A stretch of DNA of 64,000 nt, from assembly GCF_011397635.1 (NCBI RefSeq), contig NC_064759.1:23398428-23462427 (forward strand). The letters are read 5' to 3'. The notes below the pieces were generated by a model. It was not told the DNA's origin. It saw only the letters and a program-made list of their open reading frames with translations, and searched no databases. Each line of letters begins with the position of its first letter. Positions within the stretch are counted from its first letter, which is position 1. Source of the stretch: Epinephelus fuscoguttatus (lineage: Eukaryota > Chordata > Actinopteri > Perciformes > Serranidae). Below, in pieces: positions 4,312 to 20,755 of this stretch. Made by a program: the position numbers and the translations under genes.

Positions 4312-7300
4312 TTAGGAGTTTGGGAACGCAGAGGCTCGAAAGATGTCGAGACAGTTTGCTGTGATGAGGGCACCAGTCAGCTGCCTCCACTGTCTGGTGG
4401 CAGGGTGTTTCATTTTGTCCAGGACCAGGTGCAGATCCTGGATCATGTCCCTGTAGCTGTCTCCGTACCGCAGACTCCAGGAGTACAGGAAGTCGTAGGC
4501 GGGCTTCCACATCGACTGAAACGGAACGGGAATCAATTTAAAATAAAATGTTAATCATATTCACTGCAGAAATTCCACATGATTAGTGTTATATTTGCGA
4601 TATCCACTGCGTAATGTGTCAGTGTGTTCCGTTAAGCTGACCTGTGAACTGACTTCTCCGCTCTTCCCTCGGTGCGGTGCCTCATAGCCCGCTATCTGAG
4701 CACTGGAGAGTTTTCCCATCTTCTCAGCGAGCTCCCGCCATCGCACTCCCAGCTCCACAGCCGTGGACAAAATGACAGTGTTCTGAATCAGCTGGGCCAC
4801 GAGATTCACAGAGTCCATCTTCAACAGACCCTGTGGTGATAAACAGACACACTGTCATAAAAGCATAGAGCATACAGACTGTGAAATTGTCATAATTGGC
4901 ATTTCTGTTACTTTGGGAATTTGCTGTGTTGTCACAAGATTCATTTTTCTCGTATGTAGAGCACACAAAGATTTAAATGTTCAAGAAAAATATTGTTTAA
5001 ATATGTCCTTTACATAAAAGTCTGATAAGTCAATATCTGTTGCCAGGTGAGGCAACACAGCTGTGATTGAGCATACGGACCACTGATGAAAGTATTGCAA
5101 TATTTATATATGCAGTATTATGATGTTGAGGGTGACATTCTCTTAAAAAATGTTGTATTAAGTTATTGCTTATGCGGGGCGTCAGTGGCTTAGTGGTAGA
5201 GCAGGCGCCCCATGTACAAGGCTGTTGCCGCAGCAGCCCGGGTTCGACTCCAGCCTGTGGCCCTTTGCTGCATGTCACTCCCTCTCTCTCTCCCCACTTC
5301 ACGCTTGTCTGTCCTGTCAAATAAAGGCTAAAAATGCCCAAAAAATTTCTTTAAAAAAAAAGTTATTGCTTATGCAAACTGTACATTTCCAGTGTGCTGC
5401 AGCTTCACATTAAAAGCATTTAATTGGCAAAATACAAGTTCACAGGAGATGCAATGTTTGTTTTTTTTTGTGAGTATAGAGCTTACCACTATTGTTAATT
5501 AAAAATATATCTACAAAACAAGATGATGGTCATCTTCAACATTTTTTTGGCAGTGGATCGATTGAAATATTGCAGGGAGTGATGGAACAAGGAGCAGCCA
5601 GAACAAGCTTTTAAAGAGACAGGCTGCACACCTCCAGCTTAGCGAGGTAACCAATGTGACTCAACAATTAATTACAATATTATTGAAAGTGCAATATGGC
5701 CAAGTGCAATATCCAAATCACTTGAATGGGAACTTCTGATAAAGGGTGAAATGTGTCACAACATGCCATTACAAATGAAGCATTGAAGTGCTACAGAGAT
5801 GCTCTGGCCTTCATATCACATAACAGGTGCAAGGGAACATGCTTGTTAGGTACAGACCCCAGCAAAAATCACATTGTCATCATCAGTAAAAATGAAATGC
5901 ATAAAGTACCATTCACTCAAAACTCTACTTGAAACTTATATCACTGTAACAATATCTGTCAAAATAATCACAATATAATTGTTTCTGCATAACCTGTTGC
6001 TCTCGAAACCAACTCCTTTCACTGTGCCCTGCTGTCTGTAGACTGTTGTGCACATCGTAAAATCAGATCACAGTATCTCACAGAATGATGGGAAAAGGCT
6101 AATTATTGACGTCTGTATTAAAACAACAGTAGTTTGTTTTGCTGCCCTCTGTGACCTGAAGTAGTAAACTGCATTTGCTGTTACCACCAGTAACTAAGGG
6201 TGTCATCAAATTACCCAGGACTGACATCATGATAGCCACTTTAAATATATTGTTTTCCTCCACTTACCACCAGGAGCTCATGCAGAAACTTCTTCCTGCT
6301 CTTCTCAGCGTGACAATCCTCCTTCAGCCTCTCCAGTATGCAGGCCACTTTATCGGCCTCGCTTTCAGCGTGCCTCCTCATGATGGCGTCCAGTGACAGT
6401 TTGCTGTACCCTAAAGCATCAGCAAAACCTCTCCAGCTGGTTATGTGTTCAGTGACCAGCGTCTGGATGGCAGAGTACATGTAAGTAAGCTTCTTGAAGG
6501 GCAGTGTCATGTTGTCCAAGAGGACCTCTGTGGTGATGTGAATGCCGGTGAAGTCAATCACTTGGTCTCTGGTTATGAGCTTGACGTTCTTGCAGTGAAC
6601 CAAACCAGTCCTGCCTCGGAGGAATGCGATGTACCACTCCTTTACTTTGGAGTTACCTACTGACCTGACGGTCTCTCTGGACAGGAGAGCCACCGTGTCT
6701 CCCTTGAAATACTCCAGAAGGTAGTCAACACGTGGCTGACGCAGGACTGACTTTAGGGCTACACCGTACCACTGTAGGCTCACAGTTTTGTCTGTGAATT
6801 TGGGGAGATCTGGAAGACTTTCCTCAGGGATAGTTGAGCTTTTTGTCATTTCAATCCGCTTTTCTATCTGCCTGTGCACTCGCTTTTCTAATCTGATGGG
6901 TGCCGCGGGAGGGGAAGGCACCTGGAAATGTGCAAGGGTTGCAGCGTTTTCTTCCTTAACATGTAGATCCAATTTAAAAGGAGTCATTTCTGTATTACTA
7001 GCACAAGATATTGCAACTGGCAGTTGCAAAACTGTCCCTATTTTGAGCTGACTTTGTCTCACTTCTTTCAGTTCGTCCTCAGGTTTGATTTTAAACATCG
7101 AGCCAGCGAGGTTAATCCCGACATGCAGGTTGTGCAGTTTGTCTGGTTTAAACCCATGTTTGCCCCAAAGCTGCAGCACAAGTGGAGGCAGGTTTTTGTT
7201 TCCTGTCACTGAAAATGGAAGCTTTGGCGGAACGTCCTCATGACAGCAAACAACTACTGCGACCTTGAATGATGGATGGATGTACTTGGGGCCATAAACT

Positions 7301-8510
7301 GCTACTGTGATTTTGCGGTCGAGATAATCCCACACTGATGTAGCGGGAGGCTGGATTGCAGAGGCCTCTGCGACTGCAATCACATAAAAATGTGTCCTCA
7401 GGTCCTGCAGCTTCATCTGCATCATATTCTTATAAATGTAACAATCATTCACTTTAACATAAGGTCCCTCTCTTTTGTTGGACACCAGCCCAAACACTGT
7501 GGTCATTACCTGACTCACTGGGTCGCTCTTCACCTCTCCAGCTAGTTTCACCTCCAGAGAGATGCACTCCTTTATGTTGATGTTGCTGAGGACCACCTCG
7601 AGAAGCGGACTCATGGTTGTCACATAGTTGTTATTGAGTCCAGGAGGAGGGTCAAGCATTGCTTTCAGCGTTACTTCCTGGACTTCTCCAGGAGGAACAT
7701 GGCCCTCTGGGATATGGATGCTAACTTCTGATTCTGGCAGCTGTACTGAGCCTCCAGCATGGCCGATCTTACAGATGACCTGAGAGTCAGTGGCCTGCGT
7801 CTGAGCCCACCCTGGACTCTGGCTCATCAGATTTAAGTCCAGACATGAGCGTGTTAGCTGCCTGTGGCTCAGCCAGGCCATCTTGTAGGCCTCCCTGTCA
7901 TTCTTTAGCCACTCAAAATCCGGGATCAGCACGGGCCCAGGTGGTTTGAAGCTGTTCTCCCGCTTTGGCACCTTTCTCTCCAGATCATCCAGGATATCTG
8001 AAGCACTCCTCCATCTCCCAGATCTGTTGCTGGCTTTGTGTTTGTTTTCCAAAAAATTTCCCACATTGCCTTCATCTGAAGATGTGCTAATGGCATCATC
8101 GTTATTTGTGTCCAAGTCGTTTTCATTGTCTGGCTTCACATTTGATGTGTTGGAAATGTGTTTGTCCGTGCCGCTGTGTACAATGTCATCTAGAAAAGGA
8201 TTTGATCCAGACAGTTTGTTCCAAAACGGATTTTTCGACTGAGATGTGCGTGCTACTTCTGGTTGTAAAAGTGGCCACTCAGAGTTCTGTGCCCCATACC
8301 CACCTGTGAAAATATTAAGAATTTGGTTAGGACGTTGTCAGAAGGTTGTCAGATTTAGAGCACAGGCTGCCTCTGCTTCAGAGTGAGAATTTTACCATTC
8401 ACGTTGGGACTGTTTGAGACGTTGTCGTCCAGATCAATCAGTGTCCCCTCAGATTTACTCCGCATGAGACTCCCAACACGACGGAAGGACCTTGCTCTTC
8501 CTGCTGCCAT
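4312..8510 (-). CDS. macc1: macc1, MET transcriptional regulator MACC1 (four coding exons)
   Basis: The coding exons, in transcript order, are 8510-8396, 8303-6268, 4830-4642 and 4515-4312. All introns are GT-AG, and the 2,544 nt joins in frame to 847 residues plus a stop; human MACC1 is 852. The start is the ATG at 8510, followed by [20 protein letters not shown]. Visible parts: NPF motifs at residues 63-65 and 73-75 ([14 protein letters not shown]), the family signature [16 protein letters not shown] near 170, a ZU5 domain at about 215-345, an SH3 domain at about 551-615 ([16 protein letters not shown]), and two C-terminal death-like domains at about 644-717 and 720-847. The family comprises MACC1 and SH3BP4. 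MACC1 is known as a cytoplasmic/nuclear regulator of MET expression, and NPF motifs suggest links to EH-domain endocytic proteins. I chose MACC1 over SH3BP4 because the exon 2 and C-terminal wording matches MACC1 closely. The very long second exon (2,036 nt) is typical. I see no frameshift or stop, so the gene looks intact. Confidence 0.95.
5176..5359 (+). mobile_element. tRNA-derived SINE in macc1 intron, with perfect target duplication
   Basis: A tRNA-like head carries an A box (TGGCTTAGTGGTAGAGCAGG) and a B box (GGTTCGACTCC). It is followed by a TGCATGTCACTCCC body, a CT-rich stretch and an A-rich tail. The insertion is bounded by an exact 16-bp direct repeat, AAGTTATTGCTTATGC, at 5160-5175 and 5360-5375. 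It sits in the macc1 intron between the exons ending at 6268 and starting at 4830. It is a SINE and not a tRNA gene: the body and A tail continue beyond the tRNA-like part. Confidence 0.85.
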
Positions 8511-8646
8511 ATTTTCATCTGTAAACATAAAAACTACATTTTTTCAGTTTCTAAATTTACTTGCAGCTTTTAATACCAAAACAACTTTAACAACAACTCC
8601 TTAAAAAATACCCAATATACTGAAAAAATATTACATCACATTCTTA

Positions 8647-9075
8647 TTAAAGGGACAGTTCACTTTAAAATTAGAAATGTAAATTTTTCCTCTTATCTGT
8701 AGTGCTATTTGTGAATCTAGATTGTTTCGGTGTTGAGTGCTGAGTGCTGGAGATATCTGCCCTCTCTAAAGTATAATGTTACTACGTGGCACTCGGATTG
8801 TGAAACTTAAAGCATCAAAAAAATTTACAGCAAAACTAACAGCAATGTCTATTTCCAGAAGTCATGATCAGGTTACACAAGATAATCCTCAGACCTTGTT
8901 GTGAGCAGCTTCATGCTAAAGTAGTTCAATTGTATCAGAGAGAAGGCAGACATCTCCATGGTCAATATCACCAACTCTCGGCAACTCACACCATAACAGT
9001 TTAAATTGATAAACAGCACTACAGGCAAGAGGGAAAATATGTATTTTTGATTTTGGGGTGGGCTGTCCCTTTTAA
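8647..9075. mobile_element. Fold-back MITE in macc1 intron 1
   Basis: TTAA at both ends (8647-8650 and 9072-9075) encloses arms beginning AAAGGGACAG. The right arm read in reverse complement tracks the left arm for most of its length (for example TGTAGTGCTATTTGTGAATC against TGTAGTGCTGTTTATCAATT, and GGAGATATCTGCCCTCTC against GGAGATGTCTGCCTTCTC). The element is therefore close to one long hairpin. It has no coding capacity. A related copy lies at about 35,063. Confidence 0.75.
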
Positions 9076-9084
9076 TATAACTCA

Positions 9085-9421
9085 CCTAGGAAACAATTAG
9101 TCGATTTACTGATTAGTTGGTCAACAGAAAATGAATCAGCAACAATATTAATAGTGCATAATTAAAGTCGCAAATAATTTTACAGCTTGCCACAGCTTCT
9201 CTAATATGAATATTTGCTGTATTTCCTCTAACCTATAGTGAAACACTGACTGTTGTTTAGATGAAGCAAGCAGTTTGAACATGGTTTATTGTGTTTATAT
9301 GTGTTATTGTAATATGCATATATATTTTTCATTCCTTTTTGACTACATTTTACAACTTAATTCAAGAAATCAACAGGCAGATATATCGATTATATCCAAG
9401 CAACTGTTAGCCGCAGCCCTA
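9085..9421 (-). mobile_element. Degenerate hAT-like MITE (GGCTGCGGCTAAC end)
   Basis: The right edge, read on the minus strand, is TTAGGGCTGCGGCTAACAGT, and the left part contains AATTAGTCGATTTACTGATT. These match a very common fish MITE with GGCTGCAGCTAACGATTA-type ends rich in TCGATTA. The copy is diverged; it lies in macc1 intron 1 directly next to the fold-back MITE. Confidence 0.5.
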
Positions 9422-10182
9422 ACCATTAGCAGACATATATTTTGAAATGCTATGACACATGACAGCCACCAGCTCCTACACAATAAAAGACATAAAGTTA
9501 TTGTTCTGTCTCAACTGTGTTTCCTTCAGCACAGAGCCTCAGGCTTTCTGCAGTCTGTCACAGAAACTGTTCCAAAGTGTGGAATAAAGCCTGAACTCTC
9601 AGTCTGTCACTTGTTTGCGTAAAAGGACACTACCCATTCACGACTTGTCACAGTGAGTCAGTCATTAATAATGTGGTTTCTTACACCAGTGCACAAAAAC
9701 AGGTTGGTCTTGTCAAGCCTATGACACAGTAGTCAGCTCTCTCAGCGCTTCTTCCTATGATAACAGTGCAGGGCCACTGTGCGACTGTCAGTACAAATGT
9801 ATATTCTGAGCATTACTTACTGTGTTGCCTGTCATACAGTGACTCAGTATCAACTAAACTAATCTGACTGTAGCCTAATCTTTTGCATGTCTCATGTTTT
9901 TTTTGTTTATTAATTCATATGCAAATATTCTCAAACAAATGTGGCATTCATTAATAATCCACAGTAAGACATACTCAGTAGCACAGATTCACACTTCCAG
10001 CTTCACTAACCACAGCTGCAACAGCCAATACTGCCAAGTATCAGTGTCAGCGCCTCAACAGGTGTGTATACACTCCGTGGTTACACATGAATACACCTAA
10101 CCTACACAGGCCACTTCCTGTACTGAAAACGCGACAAGAAAAACCACCTATTATGGAAAAGAAAACAAAAGTTTGATCTCAC

Positions 10183-10450
10183 CGTCGGCATGAGATGACT
10201 AGTTTTGCTTCGGAGCGCTGGCAGGAAAAAGAGGCCAACCCACTATCACTTACTGTGTGGTCTGGGGCCTATCTCTGATGTTCACCTCCTCACGTTACAG
10301 CTCTTTACTGTGTTTGCTCTCGGGCACGGAGCATTTTGGGACTGGAAGTTTAAAATAATCAAGGAGCCACGGCGGAGGAGTGGCCTGTCTGGGGGCGGGT
10401 GACTACAATACCCGCAATGCACTTCTGTGTTTACGCACGAGACTTGCAAC
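10183..10450 (-). promoter_or_regulatory. macc1: macc1 promoter and probable non-coding first exon
   Basis: On the minus strand CGACG|GTGAGA at 10183/10182 is a strong splice donor with no reading frame behind it, so it probably ends a 5' UTR exon spliced to the exon carrying the ATG at 8510. Upstream the DNA is distinctly more GC-rich than its surroundings. It contains a GC box (GGGGGCGGG, 10391-10399), a near-consensus ZNF143/THAP11-type site (ACTACAATACCCGCAATGC, from 10402) and a second related sequence in opposite orientation (10330-10346, TCCCAAAATGC on the minus strand). Such sites mark TATA-less vertebrate promoters. The transcription start is not determined. Confidence 0.55.
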
Positions 10451-12269
10451 ACCTGAAACCGAGCGATACCCGTGGTTTCGACAGGAGTCTGAGTTCAGTG
10501 ATAAGCATGTTAACAAGGGAGGTGGAGGTGACTAACAAGACCAGGAGACACTACAAACATGGTTAATCACCCAGTTAGTATTTAAACTAAATATATTATT
10601 AGTCTGGTTATATATATTTACACTAATACAGCTTGTCTAGTCCACACAGCATTGAGAATTTGGCAGCAAAGACACGTGTTTACATGCCATTACTGTATAT
10701 TTATAAGGCATAAACATAGCAAAATAAGCATTATAATAGTGTTTCCTTTTCTTGCATGGTCACTCATGTAATACCTATTTTGTAACAGCGATATTTAGGA
10801 TTTATTGATTTTACTGTCTCATTATCACTGCTGTTTTGAGTGACTCAAAGCCAAAATGACCTTTGAGGTTAATCTCATCAAGGACACAAAGTCATGTTAT
10901 CTCAATGAACAGGTTACACACGTGAATACCTCAATGGATCACTAATTTACACTGTTATGTAGTATTCTTTATAGAAATATTACAGCAAGGAACCATTATT
11001 TCAGCTGCGTATAGCTTTGCAGCTGCGTGCCAAAGTGTATGAAAAGTAATAACTCCAGATACCCCCTTTTGGAGCAGCTTACTGTTTGTGTTTCAGCTGT
11101 TATCTCAGTTGATGAATATCCATGCTGAAGTTTAGATGCTGTATCAGAGCTGTTGTGGTCTTTGGATGCAGGCCCTGGTATCCACAGGCAGTTAGTAACA
11201 AAGGAATGCAACTAAGCACTCTTGAGCAGATTATGATTTTTCATAGCAAATATGGCTGCAGCAGCCTGGACTTTAGCATGACTCATTAAAATCCCCCGAC
11301 TAGAGAAGTTAAAGTGTTTAGTAAAGTATATGATTGAGGACTGGATGTTGAAACGTGTTTATTTTTGTAAAACGTCTCACTGTTTTACACCATTTGTTAT
11401 GACTGTAAGCTGTGCATGCATGATGTTGGTGTTAACTGTTTGGTTATGAAACAAAACAGATGCAATCTACATACCTCCCACATTCCTCACAGTCAAATAA
11501 TTTCATTATCAGCACTGAGTCAGATAATCCAGTAACTGGTATCTGAAACCGAGGACAGATGTGTGTGCAAATTCTGCGCCCTTGTGGCTGCTTTGAGAAC
11601 ATGCATGGGATTAGGCTGGTGGTATGCCCTGCTTTTCTTTGTATTTATTTCTTATTTTCCCATGATTGTTATCTCTGTATCCATAGCCTGCTATAGTTTT
11701 CCCCCCTCTGTGCCCCAGACTTTCATTGTTCTCCCGAAACTATTAAAAAGCACATGAATGTGGCTGTTTACTCATAAGTTAATGTTTGCTAAACGCTAGG
11801 CCACAGTGCTCAGGAAATTACTGAACCTTGTTGAACAGTGGATGTCAGAATGTACTGAAAAACAGACTTAGTTGGTTTTCTTTTTCCTTTTTTCATGCAA
11901 TCGTTGACAAGAAAACAAGAATAACTCCAGACTTTTAGAGAAAATATTTTGATTTGTCACATTGTCATCAGTAACACCTGCTCTTTATTGACAATGACAG
12001 ATAGTCACCAGTGTTAAGATGTGTATTTTGAGGTGCAGTTATTGAAGAAAATGTTCTGTCAGTCAGCTGTACATATTTTTCTGCCCTCTGGTTCATTGGT
12101 AGGCCTATGCTTCAAAATAAGAGTAAGTAAGTAGTAAATATTGACAGTATCCTATCAACAGCCATTCCTTTAAGCTGAAGAACAATGGCTCGTTGTTAAA
12201 TTATTAAAATCAATAAACTTGATAATGTACATAATTCAAATATCAGTAATATAATAATTTTAATTTTAT
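10451..12269. other. Gene-free stretch between macc1 promoter and first SINE
   Basis: AT-rich non-coding sequence. I looked for integrin beta 8 exons here, because that gene sits at this position in tetrapods, and recognised none. No long splice-bounded frame. Confidence 0.5.
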
Positions 12270-12583
12270 ATACTTTATTAATCCCCTGAGGGGAAATTCA
12301 ATTTTTCACTCTGTTGTCAATTACACACAGGTCCGAACACACACATGCACAAACTGGACCTACACATGCACTAAGTGGAGAGTTGTCAGAGTGGGCTGCC
12401 CATGACAGGCGCTCGGTTGGGGGGTTCGGTGCCTTGCTCAGGGGCAACTCGGCAGTGCCCAGGAGGTGAACTGGCACCTCTTCAGCTACCAGTTCATGCT
12501 CCATATTTTGGTCCGGACGGGGACTTGAACAGGCGACCCTCCGGTTCCCAACCCAAGTCCCTTTGGACTCAGCTACTGCCGCG
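12270..12583 (-). mobile_element. tRNA-derived SINE (minus strand)
   Basis: On the minus strand the head reads GCGGCAGTAGCTGAGTCC (A-box region) and then GGTTGGGAACCGGAGGG and TGTTCAAGTCCCCGTCC (B-box region). The element ends in TGAATTTCCCC and TTAATAAAGTATA, a tail shared by fish SINEs and their LINE partners. About 314 bp. No clear target duplication seen. Confidence 0.75.
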
Positions 12584-13526
12584 TATTAGTGTATTACTTT
12601 TAATATTAAGAAGCAGATTATTATATAATTGATTACAACAACAAAAAAACGGTATACCTTTAACAACACTAACTTAAATGACACTTCCTGTCTGGTAATA
12701 TTGCATTTACACCTTGGGGAATTTTATTTTATTTTATCTTATTTACTTGATTATTTATTTTTAGCTGGAAGTTCATTTTTGTGTGAGTACATCTAACGTT
12801 TTTCTTTCAGCAGCAAATTAGATTTGATGATCATTTTGTGTATTTGTTCGAAAAAGAACGAATCAGTTTCAAATTCACATTGAGGTGAAATTTTGTATTT
12901 CACAGCTTTGGAACTTTCTCTATCATTTCCAACTCAGGAAAGATTTTGACAAACTCTGCTAATCTCAGTTTTTTTTGCATAGAAACAGATTTATAGATTC
13001 GAATGATTCAAATATGAGTGATTTTCACAATTTACCAGAGTTGATGATTGACATGAAAGAAAATAACATCCTGCTGTGCAAACCCATGTTTACCCAGTGG
13101 ACAATGAAATGCATGGTCCTCAAGTTAAAGAAAGGGACAAACAAAAAAATTAAGGCTCAAATTTAAAAATGGTGAAACTTACATGTTTGTGCCACTTGGT
13201 GGAGCCATTTCTCTACCGTTCATTAAGTCAGACTTCTCAGTGTTTTTCATTTTAAATCCAGAAAGCAGATATCTATTTGTTTTAGATTTTCACCGCTCCA
13301 ACACATAAGGAACGTTTTGCTAAAACTAAAGCACAAACAGTAATGTGGCTATGGTTATTTTAAAACGCCTAAACAAAGCAGTGTAAAACTTGGTATACAC
13401 TGTCTCTATCAGCTGATGATACAAAGACAACACGTAGGCCTATAAAAAGGTGTCCATGCCTGCATAAAGTCTGCTTTCTTATCATGCAGCATTAACGTTA
13501 CAATGTAATCCTGCCATATGTGATTA
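12584..13526. other. Gene-free stretch
   Basis: AT-rich intergenic sequence. No coding similarity, repeat ends or regulatory cluster that I can support. Confidence 0.4.
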
Positions 13527-13814
13527 AGGCTGCAGCTAAGGATTATTTTGATTTTTGTTTCATCTGTTGATTATTTTTCAACCTATAACACTATAAGCCT
13601 ATGAAAAATGTCCATCACAGTTTTCCATAGTCCAAGTTGATACCTTCAAATGTCTTTTTTGTCCAAAAACCCAGAGATATTCAGTTTATTGTAATGTATG
13701 ATCACGAAAAGCAGCAAATCCTCATATTTAATAAGCTGAACCCCTCAAGTGTTTGTAATTTTTGCTGGACAACCAACTATCAAAATTGTTGATGACAATT
13801 TTCTGTTGCAGCTA
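13527..13814 (+). mobile_element. hAT-like MITE with GGCTGCAGCTAA end
   Basis: Left edge AGGCTGCAGCTAAGGATTAT; right edge ...TTTTCTGTTGCAGCT, whose complement starts AGCTGCAACAGAAAA. Interior phrases such as TCAAATGTCTTTTTTGTCC and GATATTCAGTTTA are those of an abundant fish MITE. It has no coding capacity. Confidence 0.65.
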
Positions 13815-14144
13815 CAGATCTTCCAGTGTATATTGCAGTATAGTGGTCTCTATCAGTGTCACAGAGACAGCAAAGCTTTAGTAAATATGCTCGTATCACC
13901 TTCACCAGGATGGCTCAGGGCTTATACCTGCTGCGGGATCCTTTATCTCGAGTGTCACTTTGCTGTCATCATCTTATTGGGATGGTTTTCATAGAGAATC
14001 ATGGCTGCATTTAATATGATGATGTATTTTAATCTCATGGTTGTAAGTGTCAGCAGTATTTTGAGGTGATATCACAGAGACAATACATGTTTTTGTCTCT
14101 GTTTTATTGACGCTGGTGTTCCCCCAGACATTTGTTTTCAGGTA

Positions 14145-14240
14145 GAGAAGTCGTTCATTTTGATCCTGTGGTTAACTGTGTTTATTCAATAGACACTGAT
14201 GTGATGAAGTCATTATATCAGACTCTGGAAAACCATCAGT
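14145..14240 (+). pseudogene. Possible second relic exon of the same ABCB-type gene
   Basis: A good acceptor (TTGTTTTCAG) is followed by a frame reading REVVHFDPVVNCVYSIDTDV. In ABCB transporters the exon just upstream of the one recognised at 14,735 contains a WFD-x(3)-N motif followed by a TRLATDAAQV-like stretch. HFDPVVN and DTDV sit in the corresponding order, but only a handful of residues agree and the spacing is shortened. It lies about 500 bp upstream on the same strand, as expected. Weak evidence; it may be chance. Confidence 0.25.
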
Positions 14241-14734
14241 TTCCCCCAGTGAGGCTCAGTCTGCAGGTATTCCACTCATCAGATCAGACAGGTGAAACAC
14301 CACCTGTGACGTAAATGAATCTAAATTGCCGAAAGCATTGTATAAGGGCACCGCTGTCAGTGTTGTAGCAATTACTGTTAATTATTTTGACTAACCTCTT
14401 AGCCTCGTCAAATTGCCTTTCCCTGGAGATTGGTTGGTTTGATGACAATGACAGTGCGGTTGGTGGTTTTAACCACAAAATTGGCCACAGATGCATCATC
14501 GGTGAGAGGTGTCACCACAACACTGTGGTTTGCTGGTAGAACTTGAAAACCCAATATATCTCATCATATCAACAGCAGCTGGCGTGTCCGTGGAGCCTCA
14601 GTCAAGACTGCCATGAATTAAGCAGAGTATTATTATATTATTATGTATATATTATTAAGCAGATTACAACCTCCATGTCATTTATACATACAATATCCAG
14701 TGTAGGATGATTATTTCTCTTTCGTGTTTTCTAG

Positions 14735-14927
14735 ATGGATCAAAGCTGGATTTGGCTGCCAACACGCTCTGACCGTAGCTGTTATCGTGGCCTTCATCCA
14801 TAGTTGGCAGCTCACCCTCCTCATCACAGCATGTGTTACCTTCCTCTCTGAGGCCAACTTAATTCAAATGAGGGCAGCGGCGGGTCACTCCTGTGAGGAC
14901 CAGGTGAGACCGCAACGGTCTGGGAAG
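14735..14927 (+). pseudogene. Decayed exon of an ABCB-type ABC transporter (abcb5-like relic)
   Basis: The plus-strand frame reads IKAGFGCQH, then VAFIHSWQLTLLI, then NLIQMRAAAGHSCEDQ and RSGK. This follows, in order, the second transmembrane domain of ABCB1/ABCB5-type P-glycoproteins: the VKG-IGSRL stretch, the helix ending FIYGWQLTLL, and the loop ending with GSGK. Relative to the family about eight residues are missing between GFGC and VAFI. An acceptor (TTTTCTAG) precedes the exon at 14734, and GT follows the SGK codon at 14928, at a family-like phase-0 boundary. No nucleotide-binding domain, Walker motif or intact neighbouring exon can be found nearby, so this is a relic and not a live gene. 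Its place and strand match ABCB5 between MACC1 and SP8 in human. The choice of abcb5 over other ABCB genes rests on that position. Confidence 0.7.
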
Positions 14928-15728
14928 GTGTTAATAACATGACAACACAGAGCCGTGTGCTGTGACATGTGGCCAAAATTATTCTGTTCACGTTTAATGA
15001 TTACTTTTTGACTGTTTAGATTTTACTCATCTGTTTAAGAAGTTGAAGACCATTGTTTTTGGACACAAAATCTTCTCTCAAATGTTTGAGGCCAGTTTGA
15101 GTCAAACTAAAAATGTGTATTACTTTAAACATTTTAATAGCAGTTTGTCTTCCAGTCCTGGTTGATATCAGTTTTATGAAATATATTTTCCATTTTTGAA
15201 ACTTCCCGGGATAAAATCTTCAATAAACCAATCTGAAATAAACAAAAAACAAAACCTAACATGTCAAACCTGATGCTGAAGGGAATGCTTGACTTAAAAT
15301 TTCCCCCACAGTCCTTTGTGTGTGAATATATTTGCTGCTTGAGTGGTGAACAATCTTTGTCTCATGTTTCTGATTTTACTGAAAAATGCAGCGACTCAAA
15401 AACTGAACTATCTTGTTGCAACCAGAGTCACAACAAAGATACAATAAAGCCTGTAACATCTTTACCCTTTAGCTTAATCACTGGCTGTAAATACTTATTA
15501 TTTTGTGAATATTAAAACACGGGTAATTCAAAGGGGATTTGGTGTGTAATTGTGCTGTAGGCCTTATATGTCTCTATAACCTAATCCCAAATAACGCCAG
15601 AGTGCTTCAGTGACCCAGCAAAGGCAGAATTTCCTCAGTCAAAACCTATCTGCTCTGCTATTTCAGTTTCGTGGTCCCACCTGAACTTGTCACTTTCACT
15701 TTGACTGTTTTTGTCCTCACAGCATTTT

Positions 15729-15798
15729 CAGCTTGGCTGCACCATCGCAGAAGAAGTATCAACAGAGAAGAGGAGGAGAAGAAGAAGATATGAAGGTG
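15729..15798 (+). pseudogene. Possible third relic exon of the same ABCB-type gene
   Basis: In the frame continuing from the relic's GSGK boundary, this stretch reads TIAEEVSTEKR and then a run of arginines. The next ABCB exon normally begins with an IATEAIENFR-like sequence. CAG acceptors lie at 15722 and 15730 and a GT donor at about 15799. Agreement is limited to four or five of ten residues, and the arginine run from a GAA/AGG-rich tract is unlike the family. Supportive only because it is collinear with the better-preserved exon. Confidence 0.3.
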
Positions 15799-15799
15799 T

Positions 15800-17820
15800 A
15801 AGTGTCATCCTTCTTAGTATGTGTGTGTGTGTGCACTTTAACATTTTGATGTGTGAAAGAAGATTAATGTTTTATGTCATTATGGGCCTTTTTCAGGAAT
15901 TCCAGCAAAGCATTAGGATGAATATTAGTTGTTCCATTGAGATGTCTTAATGCAGTCCTCAGAGCGAGACCTGTAAGTACTTTAATGTCTAATTTGCTTA
16001 TCATTGATAAAATTTTGAAAGCATCATCTGAGACACCACAGAACATTGTGCTTCAACCCCGACTGACACATATCTACACCTGATCTGATTCAAGAAGTTA
16101 GGTGGGTGAACTGAGGATCGTGATCACCTTATGTTGTTCATATCAATGCACATGTCTCATAGTGCTGAAAAAAGGCATTCATAGTACCGATTGTTCATCT
16201 TTGCAGCTGAATTTGTTGAAATTAAAGCCTCAATTTTTAGTCTCAGAGTTCTGCACAAACAGTTACAAGTTTGAATGTGGTTTGAAAATGCAGTAAAACT
16301 GAAGGAGAGCTTGCTTGAATAACTCAGAATAAGTCTTCTCAGCTATCGGTAAAGTCACCAGAACTCCAAACCATAAATTGCTGGTTAAGTGGATCAAGGT
16401 TGAACTTTAAATTCCTGTTGGTTGAATGTTAAAGCGCTAGATGGCGCTACAGAGCTGCGCTTAGAGAGCAGTCCAACAGAAGTTTGGAAGATACTGGTAT
16501 AGTTTGCCCTTCAAGGATAAGCTCACGAAACAGAAATCACAATACTTAGAGAAATACAATAATTAGATGTGTTGATATTTATCATGCTTATAATGTCTGT
16601 AACACAGTTTAGAGGATGATCTGTCCGTCAGTGCGCACACTATCATGTCATTATAGGTGCGTATATTTGATGCGTAAAAACTCCAGAAACAATAAATAAA
16701 AAATGTAAATAGGAAAACTGAGGTTATCTGTATTAAATGTTGTAACTGACAGAAAATACAAAATACAAGCTGCTTGCTTAAATGGGGAAAAAAGCTCAAT
16801 TGTGTGACCTCAGACAGGCATTTAAGTCCAAATATACATTATTGCAAAGTATAAAAAATAAATAAATAGCAAATAGAGATAAATTGGAAATAAATAAATA
16901 CACATTTGTTCTTGTTTCTGATCTTGTACTGATGATTTTAAACTGGTAATTTTGAATTGTAGCAAGTGATTTAGTGTAACTTGGGATAAAGTCAAATTAA
17001 GCCCAACCTTAAAACGAAACTTTTCGCCACAGAATTATATTTCATTAAATTGTCTTATTGTGTTTAAATATTTACAAACTGCTGTCCATAATGTAGGCAT
17101 ATATCTGTAGAAACTAAATCTACTGCGCATTTATTTCCAGCACACATTTTGGATGAACAAAAGATGTGCGTATTTTGGAGGAAGGTCCGCTGAGCAAGAA
17201 AGTTTGGTTACAAAAAAACTCATTAACATTTTTGGAATTTGGGAAAAAATATGTAAATAACAACCAAATAGAGAACTGACAATATGTACCATTGGAAATA
17301 CAGTTAATAACGTACTGTTTATAATACACATATTAAATAGCATACTATTAAATTGCTGGGTTGACATCATTAGGCGTGTTTGACCTGTTACTTTCGTCCC
17401 TAGATAAATGTTTAGGTTTTATTTTCAGGCTCAACAGAAAAACTGACACAGACCGAGAATTGTGCCTGAATTTAAACCATACATTATTGTTTTTCCGTTT
17501 CTTTTTTTAAACCAGTTGCTCCATTTAATTATTTGATTTTATTACTGAGATGAAAAATAATTTATAGGTGAGGCCTCGTTTCTTGCTTCAGGCCCTTTTT
17601 CACACCCCGGCCTGAAAAACGTGTAAAAACCAGCAGCTGCACACGGAGGTCATGAAACGCAACACCTGTGTTAAATCATCAGTGATGGAAAAATGAAATG
17701 CATGATGTTATAATATAAAAGAATAAATTCTAGGCGATGTAATTATTCCATACTTTCAGGTCTGCCGTTCAAAAATAGATTGTATCGACTCAACAATCAA
17801 ACAAACCGAGTCGATCAACT
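15800..17820. other. Gene-free stretch before the sp8 3' end
   Basis: AT-rich sequence with no recognised coding exon. I searched for further ABC-transporter motifs (Walker A, LSGGQ) and found none. Confidence 0.45.
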
Positions 17821-17824
17821 GCGT

Positions 17825-18927
17825 CTGAATTCATACTGACTTTATTGAGTGGCTCACATAAAAAGCCATTCTCGGAGAGGGGGAAAAAATACCATTGTAA
17901 AATTAAAATCACTTTACAACATGCTTACTTAAATTAAATGAGTGGGTAAACAGTAAATGATTTCAAAACCTTAACAAATAAATTCAAAGTGCGCCTAATG
18001 ATAGACCCCTAAATACAAGAAAAGTCGTGGTTAAATATAACTCCCCACAATACATTTCATATCATGTCAAAGAAAAATCCAAGTACATTTTCCGTATATT
18101 TTCAAATATTTACTAGAGTCCATATACAACTAGAAATACCTATACAAAATCGTCTCCTGGACAAATACATTACTCACCTTTACATCGGGCTGTAATTATT
18201 CTAACCTACATTTCTCATTATATACAACACATTTTGCAGCGAAGTGTAAGTAACCTCCACTGGCCTACTTACAAACTTGGCTTGACGCACATACTGTAGG
18301 CTGTGGAGTGAATAGCAATATGTGATATAAACCTACAACTGCTTCTCCATTATCAAACGCTCGATGGGATCAGGCAGAGAAAACAAACCCATCCTGTATC
18401 TGACCATAACTCTACAGGTATTTGTTTCTACCGAGCAGTCCGTCCACAGGGGACACACAGGAACAATTTCTCCTGCTCGATAATAAAGTGCCAGAGTTTG
18501 GTTTTGAAACAATATGTATGACAGCAGTAGCACAACTTTGCAGGCCTAAAAATGTTCACAGCAGTGTTTGTATATCTTTTGCGACTCCTGTCCTGGGAAA
18601 TAAAACACCAAGGAAGAATTCAGGATCAGATGCAAATCAAAAGTTTGTTGTGCCCTGTTGTGCCCACAATGACTTGATTACACTTTCACACCGCGGATGT
18701 ATTAATGAGAAGTTTCTGATGGTACAGCTATGAAATTATGTAATTAGTAGTCTTAAACACTTGGAAAAAGTCAAAGAAACGTATAGGCCTATTTTTTCAT
18801 TAAATGACGACACTCATTATGAAGCATTGCGCATACACCAGAGTATGTCCACTCCCGTGTCCTCGCGGACAATTCCGTCACAACACTTTGTTGTTTTACA
18901 GTTTTTTTTACTTCACTGAGGGGAGTT
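17825..18927 (-). other. sp8: sp8 3' untranslated region with polyadenylation signal
   Basis: From the sp8 stop codon the minus strand runs through AT-rich, open-frame-free sequence to AATAAA (plus-strand TTTATT at 17841-17846) within CACTCAATAAAGTC. Cleavage would be expected about 15-25 bp beyond. The length (about 1.1 kb) is ordinary for this gene class. The end point is inferred from the signal alone. Confidence 0.5.
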
Positions 18928-20755
18928 TTAGAGGCCGTTCATGCCTACTCCCTGGTTTGACTCGGATTGGTGCAACAGGTCGGGGGAATGGCACGGAGGG
19001 CTTCCCGGCGCGCTGTGCTCGCTGTCGGTATCACTCCCCCTCTTCCCTCCGCTGCCCCCGGAGCCAGAGCCGGCGGATCCTCCGGCGCTGTGAGTTTTTA
19101 CATGTTTACTCAGGTGATCGCTACGCATAAATCTCTTGTTGCACACCGGACAGGCGAATCTTTTCTCGCCGGTGTGTGTGCGTAAATGTCGCTGGAGCTC
19201 GTCGGAGCGCGTGAACCTCTTCCCGCAAAAGAGCCAGTTGCACACAAACGGCCTCTCGCCTGTGTGCCACCTCAAATGCGCCTTGAGGTGCGACGTTTTC
19301 CCGTAAACCTTTCCACAGCCGGGGATGTGACAGCTGTGGAGACCCTTCCTCCGGAGGCTGGCGCCCGCCGGTCCCAGTCTCTCCGCCTCCTGGCAGTTTG
19401 GACAGTCGCAGGTGGCTCTGCCCGAGTACCGCCGGGCAGATGACCTCGGAGACCCCGCTAAAGATGCAGGTGGACCCCCGGAGAGCATAGTGCCCCCTGC
19501 CCCGGCCAATGGAGAGGGGCTTGTGTCCGGATAAGAGGATAACACCGGCTTGAAACCGTCCATCAGGTGCTGGCCGGTTGTCAACAGGTGTGGAGAGGGA
19601 CTTGTACTGAAAGCAGAGTGACTTAAACTCGAGTAATCAGAATTATATCCGCCCAGTGGAGAGTGCAAGGAGGTCTGGAGTCCACTGGAATGTAAGGACG
19701 TTTGTAGTGCTGCTCCATTAGGGTTTTGAACGTCAATCCATCCCGCTCCCACATCCCACCACGCAGAGGCTCCGGTGGTTCCAACCTCTCCTGTGGGGAT
19801 ACCGGGATGAGACGATTTGAACCAGGACTCGTAGGGATGCGCAACGCTCATCCTCGGATAGATGCCCTGCAAACTGTCCACTGAGGTGTGCACCTTGGAG
19901 ATGAAAACCGGCTGGTGGCTGGATTCTTGGGAGCTGCTCGAAACCGACGCTTGGAAAACAGAATAATCGTTTCCGAAGTGTGAACCAGGCGAGGCACCGG
20001 ACGTGAGGGAAAAAGCACTGGATCCGGTGGAGGTGTTGGTGCCGAAAGAGTCCGAGATGCCGGATCCGTTGCGGGACACCCCGAAGCCGGACAGGCCGGA
20101 TCCGAGGCTGCAGCTGCTCGCCGCGGCTCGTTTCCACGGGTGGAAGCCTTTTCCAAAGGACGAGGAATTATCCGAAATGGTCGACGGTGAAGGGCTCGGA
20201 CTCCCTATTTTGTTGCATGTTGCAGCTAACATGGCTAAAGGAGTCGATCCTAATCTCGGCTCCTCCTGAAAGAACAAGAAAAGCTGTGAGTGACTGGTCA
20301 GTCTAACAAGTTGAGCAGGTTCATTACAGACATTTCTATGCAGTATTTCAGCCCCAAAGAGAAGGGTAAGTTAGAAAACTGTTCACCAGGTTATGCAGAT
20401 ACCTAACAAGCCGAGGGTCTACTTTTTGTAAAGTTTAGAAATCATTACAGTAGATTATTTCCTACCTGGACGAACTGAAAGCAGACAACTTAAACGCGAC
20501 ACACAGCGCTTACAAATGCATGCCAAACAGGACACCAAGGAAAACATGCGTGTTTTTGCGCACCGGGTCAAACTTCTCACAGAGCCTCAGCTTTTTCTTA
20601 CAGCCAACCGTTTGCTGAAAATCTAACCAACGCACTGCCTTTGCTGCTACTTTGCGGCCGCTGTAAGTTTAATCCCCCTCCGCCGGACAATGACAAGAAC
20701 TAATTAAACCAGTAAGAAAGTCCTTTCGACTCACCCCTAGAAGTGAAGTTGCCAT
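18928..20755 (-). CDS. sp8: sp8, Sp-family zinc-finger transcription factor (two coding exons)
   Basis: Exons are 20755-20735 (MATSLLG) and 20265-18928, joined in phase 0 through a 469-bp GT-AG intron, giving 452 residues. The short first exon encoding MATSLLG and the following [20 protein letters not shown] are diagnostic of Sp8 (Sp box at about 14-28). The middle is a Ser/Gly/Pro-rich transactivation region. A buttonhead box ([13 protein letters not shown]) lies at about 293-305. Three C2H2 fingers follow at about 319-341, 349-371 and 379-399, with the [24 protein letters not shown] and [12 protein letters not shown] recognition helices that bind GC/GT boxes. Sp8 acts in limb/fin ectodermal ridge and forebrain patterning downstream of Wnt/FGF signals. 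The protein is shorter than mammalian SP8 (about 490-508) because homopolymer expansions are absent. All zinc ligands are present, so it looks functional. The sp8a versus sp8b paralogue cannot be settled here. Confidence 0.95.

What the first reader, a model, noticed from the sequence alone, without database searches (positions are those of the whole stretch)
14735..14927. Relic of an abcb5-like ABC transporter between macc1 and sp8
A plus-strand exon still readable as the FIxxWQLTLL transmembrane segment and following loop of an ABCB transporter sits exactly where ABCB5 lies in tetrapods, on the expected strand, with plausible splice borders but an internal deletion and no intact partner exons. 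It indicates local gene decay.
Basis: partly seen in the sequence, partly recalled or inferred. Interest (0 to 1): 0.75.

Follow-up and report, generated by a model that had tools for sequence, protein, structure and literature searches.

The report
Two-exon relic of transporter gene abcb5
Between the fish genes macc1 and sp8 lie two broken neighbouring exons of a dead drug-pump-type transporter gene, most likely abcb5, a gene already reported missing from several spiny-rayed fishes and cod; it is a fossil of a known gene loss.

Summary
14735-14927 (+) is a decayed exon of the second transmembrane domain of an ABCB full transporter (best solved-structure match Abcb4, E 7e-9). It keeps splice-like borders but has lost a net 11 nt near its 5' end, so phase-0 entry meets a stop at 14801. 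0 of 200 shuffles reach either score. Of 18 other exon profiles scanned in the 10.6-kb macc1-sp8 interval, none gives a convincing independent match. Genome-wide, the four best matches to this exon are one abcb4-type gene, two abcb11-type genes and the window; no intact abcb5 was found. ABCB5 belongs to the MACC1-ITGB8-SP8 block and is scored absent in medaka, fugu, stickleback, Tetraodon, tilapia and cod (PMC3655950, passages). Best reading: a unitary pseudogene of abcb5, a remnant of a known loss. The name rests on position; sequence only weakly favours P-glycoproteins over abcb11 and could not be compared with any abcb5.

The parts
14735..14927 (+). Decayed exon of ABCB transmembrane domain 2 (FIxxWQLTLL helix and following loop), 193 nt against 204 in intact abcb4; net -11 nt near the 5' end; phase-0 reading stops at 14801-14803
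14426..14510 (+). Decayed upstream neighbour exon (EIGWFDD...LTTKLATDASSVRG), 85 nt against 84 in abcb4; one extra base around 14465 shifts the frame; acceptor dinucleotide TG instead of AG; donor GTCACC
14511..14734 (+). Former intron between the two relic exons, 224 nt (584 nt in the fish's intact abcb4-type gene)
6244..8337 (-).

Best explanation
It is a unitary pseudogene: the recognisable remainder (two consecutive exons of the second transmembrane domain) of abcb5, which once stood on the + strand between macc1 and sp8 and was lost in this fish. It makes no transporter. Shown: homology, order, strand, a frame-breaking change in each exon, no convincing match for the other 18 scanned exon profiles, no other comparable orphan copy in the genome. 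Inferred: that the dead gene was abcb5 rather than another P-glycoprotein, and that this is the same loss as reported for other acanthomorph fishes.
For: Significant match to P-glycoprotein TMD2. Two neighbouring exons in correct order and strand, 224 nt apart, scores 81.2 and 112.5; 0 of 200 shuffles reach either (maxima 37.5 and 50.5), and 8 control strands give at most 30.8 and 37.0. Frameshift in each, TG acceptor, stop at 14801. The four best genome-wide matches to the exon are abcb4, two abcb11 and this relic. Differences from the fish's abcb4 at codon positions 1/2/3 are 39/20/46 of 78 codons (p1 against p2, Fisher 0.003), so much of the divergence seems to have built up under coding constraint, as expected for an old paralog that died later. 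Tree split puts it with P-glycoproteins and away from abcb11 and TMD1 (aLRT 92.6, ultrafast bootstrap 80, below the usual 95). Published block MACC1, ITGB8, ABCB5, SP8, and abcb5 scored 0 in medaka, fugu, stickleback, Tetraodon, tilapia and cod (passages).
Against: No abcb5 protein was available, so orthology by sequence is untested. Overall identity is about the same to abcb4 (35 of 81) and abcb11 (34 of 81), and the upstream exon alone is slightly closer to abcb11 (19 of 28) than to abcb4 (17 of 28). ITGB8, listed between MACC1 and ABCB5 in the published block, was not looked for. The alignment used for codon positions was made on amino acids, which favours unchanged positions 1 and 2. The 50-codon aligned frame is still free of stops, though that is unremarkable under neutrality (P 0.46 to 0.30 at 0.2 to 0.4 substitutions per site).
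Confidence: 0.88

Rival explanations
1. A fragment of abcb4 (or another ABCB gene) copied into this interval by duplication and dead on arrival, unrelated to abcb5.
For: Identity to abcb4 is as high as to any relative compared; the abcb4-type gene lies on the same chromosome, about 11 Mb away. The intron between the exons excludes a processed copy but not a segmental one.
Against: A dead-on-arrival copy should differ about equally at codon positions 1 and 2; here 39 against 20 of 78. It would also have to land by chance, on the right strand, in the interval where abcb5 is expected (10.6 kb of 1,047 Mb), while no other such orphan was found.
Confidence: 0.07
2. The exons are still used: an alternative exon of some transcript, or DNA kept for regulating sp8 or other neighbours after the gene died.
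For: The second exon keeps acceptor, donor and a stop-free stretch of 50 aligned codons.
Against: Frame broken in both exons, acceptor of the first changed, and 23 of 47 residues invariant in four P-glycoproteins have changed. Absence of stops is expected fairly often at plausible neutral divergence. No conservation or RNA data were available.
Confidence: 0.04

Closest known systems
ABCB5 / abcb5 (full ABCB transporter in the MACC1-ITGB8-SP8 block; reported in zebrafish, catfish, rainbow trout and tetrapods: PMC3655950 and PMC8696203, passages; PMC3765700, one section and passages)
   Same: Interval, strand relative to macc1 and sp8 (the human strand arrangement is recalled), and two consecutive TMD2 exons with the exon limits of P-glycoprotein genes.
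   Different: Only 2 of the 20 scanned exon profiles are recognisable, both frame-broken; no convincing nucleotide-binding-domain exon.
abcb4-type P-glycoprotein gene of the same fish (C8:12.34-12.37 Mb, L013-L015)
   Same: Same exon pair and matching exon borders, 35 of 81 residues identical.
   Different: Open in both exons, elsewhere on the chromosome, intron 584 nt instead of 224.

Membership tests
ABCB5 (abcb5 orthologue) | Lies between macc1 and sp8 | tested here: met
   published block from the figure legend of PMC3655950. itgb8 not looked for; gene names macc1 and sp8 partly recalled.
ABCB5 (abcb5 orthologue) | Groups with ABCB5 proteins in a gene tree | not testable with these tools
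   No ABCB5 among the PDB matches listed; a tree without it leaves the relic unresolved among P-glycoproteins.
ABCB5 (abcb5 orthologue) | Working full transporter, two TMDs and two NBDs | tested here: not met
   2 of 20 exon profiles found, both frame-broken.
P-glycoprotein-type ABCB full transporter, as source of a pseudogene | TMD2 exon homology above chance | tested here: met
P-glycoprotein-type ABCB full transporter, as source of a pseudogene | Closer to P-glycoproteins than to abcb11 | tested here: inconclusive
   35 against 34 of 81 identical; split support 92.6/80.
Unitary pseudogene | Frame-breaking changes and no intact copy found elsewhere in the genome | tested here: met
   only best candidates are scored by the genome search.
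Unitary pseudogene | No functional transcript | not testable with these tools
   No RNA data.

The most novel reading that the evidence does not exclude
abcb5 died late, or separately, in this fish's lineage rather than once in a common ancestor of neoteleosts, so that relics of different ages remain at the macc1-sp8 locus (and perhaps at its duplicate on C13, where one weak match lies on the expected strand) and could date several independent losses; or the surviving exon pair was kept because its DNA gained a regulatory use.
Probability: 0.12. Interest if true: 0.4.

Novelty: new member of a known kind. Interest (0 to 1): 0.2.

Why it matters
Absence of abcb5 from medaka, stickleback, cod, tilapia and pufferfish has been reported from annotation and homology searches (PMC3655950, PMC4607974, PMC8131381, passages). 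A positioned relic turns 'not found' into 'present and then lost' for this fish, supports abcb5 as ancestral at this locus in teleosts, and means that findings on zebrafish Abcb5 (an efflux pump expressed in ionocytes according to the review PMC8696203, passages) should not be carried over to fishes without the gene. It is modest in scope.

Tried and rejected
Other exon profiles, + strand of the interval: N2c 43.0 (12524-12583; 1 of 200 shuffles reach it), N1c 38.2 (9347-9439; 10 of 200), T1e 38.8 (9894-9995; 11 of 200), T2e 31.0 (ending 18829; 21 of 200), N1a 30.2 (8646-8690; 30 of 200). All five slightly exceed the maximum of the 8 control strands. Not counted as exons: with 18 profiles tested a few such ranks are expected; N2c lies upstream of the TMD2 exons (wrong order) and reaches 46.0; T1e lies downstream of N1a and N1c, the reverse of gene order; T2e reaches 39.5. 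N1a and N1c are in order with each other and with the relic, so faint remains of the first half are not excluded. T1c (47.8, ending 14831; 0 of 200) is a cross-match of the paralogous first-domain profile to the main relic exon, and T1b (36.0, ending 14462) lies on the upstream one. The first exon peptide (T1a) was searched only by tblastn. A stretch near 15720-15800 looked like a following exon by eye; the scan did not support it.

TMD1 as source: rejected, 24 of 79 identical. abcb11 as source: identity about equal, weak tree split against it. Second sp8 locus (C13:22.57-22.63 Mb, L031-L036): no match comparable to the window; the best, 46.8, is described under Noticed in passing. Genome-wide search with the exon's own peptide gave six places: itself, abcb4 (E 0.001), C23:18.62 Mb (0.34), C9:28.75 Mb (0.53) and both abcb11 (1.2, 3.9); the C23 and C9 places were not followed up. 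The upstream exon peptide found only the three intact genes, not the relic, whose frame is split. The 66 Pfam PF00664 matches were not all assigned to genes; the relic is not among them.

Dating: extra changes relative to abcb4 with abcb11 as outside group were looked at, but 50 codons and no relatives do not give an age; none is claimed.

Literature: searches (abcb5+percomorph: 0 papers). No title or abstract start listed there, and no passage I read, describes a relic at this locus. Six papers were opened in part; 8 of the 12 listed, and others in the later listings, were not opened. Subscription papers and supplements were not searched.

Full report
Setting. The window is C8:23398428-23462427 of a genome of 1,046,998,120 bases in 26 contigs, a fish by its genes (recall). 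The 10,593-base interval 8338-18930 between the large macc1-type exon (6244-8337, -) and the sp8-type exon (18931-20370, -) holds no N. The macc1 label fits its ZU5, UPA_SH3BP4 and DEATH_SH3BP4 domains; the other two genome-wide matches are only 40% identical (probably sh3bp4 genes, recalled), so macc1 appears single-copy. The sp8-type exon has a 68% identical relative at C13:22.58 Mb and a 65% one on C17.

The exon. The frame from 14736 reads WIKAGFGCQHALTVAVIVAFIHSWQLTLLITACVTFLSEANLIQMRAAAGHSCED. phmmer against the PDB lists 39 distinct sequences at E up to 10, best Abcb4 9oe1/9ody (E 7e-9, residues 841-884), then entries named P-gp, ABCB4 and ABCB1, pgp-1, bile salt export pumps and ABC transporter B family member 19. 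The homologous intact exon of the fish's own abcb4-type gene (L013, C8:12.35 Mb) is 204 nt, phase 0, between CAG| and |GTGGGG. The relic is 193 nt, TAG|14735...14927|GTGTTA: its 3' end aligns to the last codon, the first matched column is 16 of 68, net loss 11 nt in the 5' part. Entered in phase 0 it reads into a stop at 14801-14803.

The missed partner. Searching the window with 21 exon peptides of the abcb4-type gene gave, besides this exon (E 3.3e-10), two overlapping hits of the immediately preceding exon at 14426-14482 and 14469-14510, in two frames of the + strand (E 6e-4 each). The frameshift-tolerant alignment runs from codon 1 to codon 28 of that exon with one extra base around 14465. 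The acceptor position reads TG (an AG lies three bases further in, so a shifted acceptor is conceivable); the donor reads GTCACC. The exons are 224 nt apart, against 584 nt in abcb4.

Statistics. With 20 exon profiles, a frameshift-tolerant scan of the interval gave 81.2 for the upstream exon and 112.5 for the main one. Maxima were 30.8 and 37.0 in 8 control strands of the rest of the window, and 37.5 and 50.5 in 200 dinucleotide shuffles of the interval's + strand, 0 of 200 reaching either observed score. In 18 strands of 9 other 10-kb loci the main exon's profile reached at most 46.8 (four best profiles printed per strand). Of the other 18 profiles, T1c is a cross-match to the same exon; N2c, N1c and T1e rank at 1, 10 and 11 of 200 and are not accepted, for reasons of gene order and number of tests given under Tried and rejected.

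Genome-wide. The exon peptide of the closest structure finds six places at E up to 10: the abcb4-type gene (1.2e-27), abcb11-type genes on C24 and C13 (2e-12, 1.1e-10), the window (9.3e-7), and first-domain exons of the abcb4-type gene and the C13 gene (0.002, 0.24). The upstream exon peptide finds three: the intact genes. So no intact abcb5 was found; the tool scores only the best candidates, so a very divergent copy could be missed.

Which gene. The figure legend of PMC3655950 lists the ABCB5 synteny block as TMEM196, MACC1, ITGB8, ABCB5, SP8, SP4, DNAH11, CDCA7L, RAPGEF5 (passages; the figure itself is not held, so the order is that of the legend and of recall). PMC3765700 reports that zebrafish abcb5 is syntenic with human ABCB5 and that Tetraodon has the synteny but no abcb5 (section 5 read). 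The table of PMC3655950 scores ABCB5 as 0 in medaka, fugu, stickleback, Tetraodon, tilapia and cod and 1 in coelacanth; the names of the first four columns, all 1, are cut off in the passage, and the text says catfish and zebrafish have it. PMC4607974 could not find abcb5 in marine medaka, Japanese medaka, tilapia or Tetraodon (passages). PMC8131381 did not find it in medaka, stickleback and cod (passage). PMC8696203 states that zebrafish and rainbow trout have it (passages). The relic stands where this gene is expected, on the strand opposite to macc1 and sp8 (the human strand arrangement is recalled).

Sequence alone does not name it: 35 of 81 residues match own abcb4, 34 of 81 either abcb11, 24 of 79 either TMD1; the upstream exon is slightly closer to abcb11 (19 against 17 of 28), the main exon to P-glycoproteins (18-21 against 15 of 53). 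In a maximum-likelihood tree of nine sequences the split between P-glycoproteins plus relic and abcb11 plus TMD1 has support 92.6/80, moderate at best; placement within P-glycoproteins is unresolved and the relic branch is long (0.81).

Mode of decay. Of 47 residues invariant in four functional P-glycoproteins, the relic keeps 24. Differences from abcb4 at codon positions 1, 2, 3 are 39, 20, 46 of 78 (p1 against p2, P 0.003; p2 against p3, P 4e-5); abcb4 against the C24 abcb11 gives 25, 13, 28 of 50 for the main exon. That uneven pattern suggests that much of the divergence was laid down while the gene was functional; a copy dead from birth should show positions 1 and 2 about equal. The stop-free 50 aligned codons are not evidence of use: under neutral change of 0.2 to 0.4 per site, 46 to 30% of simulated copies stay free of stops.

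Conclusion. It is a unitary pseudogene of, most likely, abcb5: a physical remnant of a loss already reported for acanthomorph fishes. Interest is modest.

Noticed in passing
L033:4208-4333, minus strand (C13:22604208-22604333): Weak match (46.8, three shifts or gaps) of the main exon's profile about 23 kb from the second sp8-type gene, on the strand expected for a duplicated abcb5. 1 of 200 shuffles of the window interval reaches this score, but it is the best of 18 strands scanned and the two neighbouring exon profiles tried show nothing nearby: a lead only.
   Followed up: partly
L037:6900-7715 (C8, left of the window): Open frame of 272 aa that looks like a nearly complete Tc1/mariner-type transposase (recognised by eye, recall).
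   Followed up: no
L039, minus strand (C8:23368428-23378427): Open frame with a twist-type bHLH domain (recalled as twist1), which fits the human 7p21 neighbourhood of MACC1, ABCB5 and SP8 (recall).
   Followed up: no
window 5033-5350 (-) and L038 minus strand: Similar open stretches ([11 protein letters not shown].../TCSKGSQAGVE...) suggest a dispersed repeat shared across the region.
   Followed up: no
L028 (C13:22.58 Mb): Second sp8-type gene, probably the teleost-duplication partner; no macc1 match within C13:22.57-22.63 Mb (none at E 0.001) nor elsewhere near it.
   Followed up: partly
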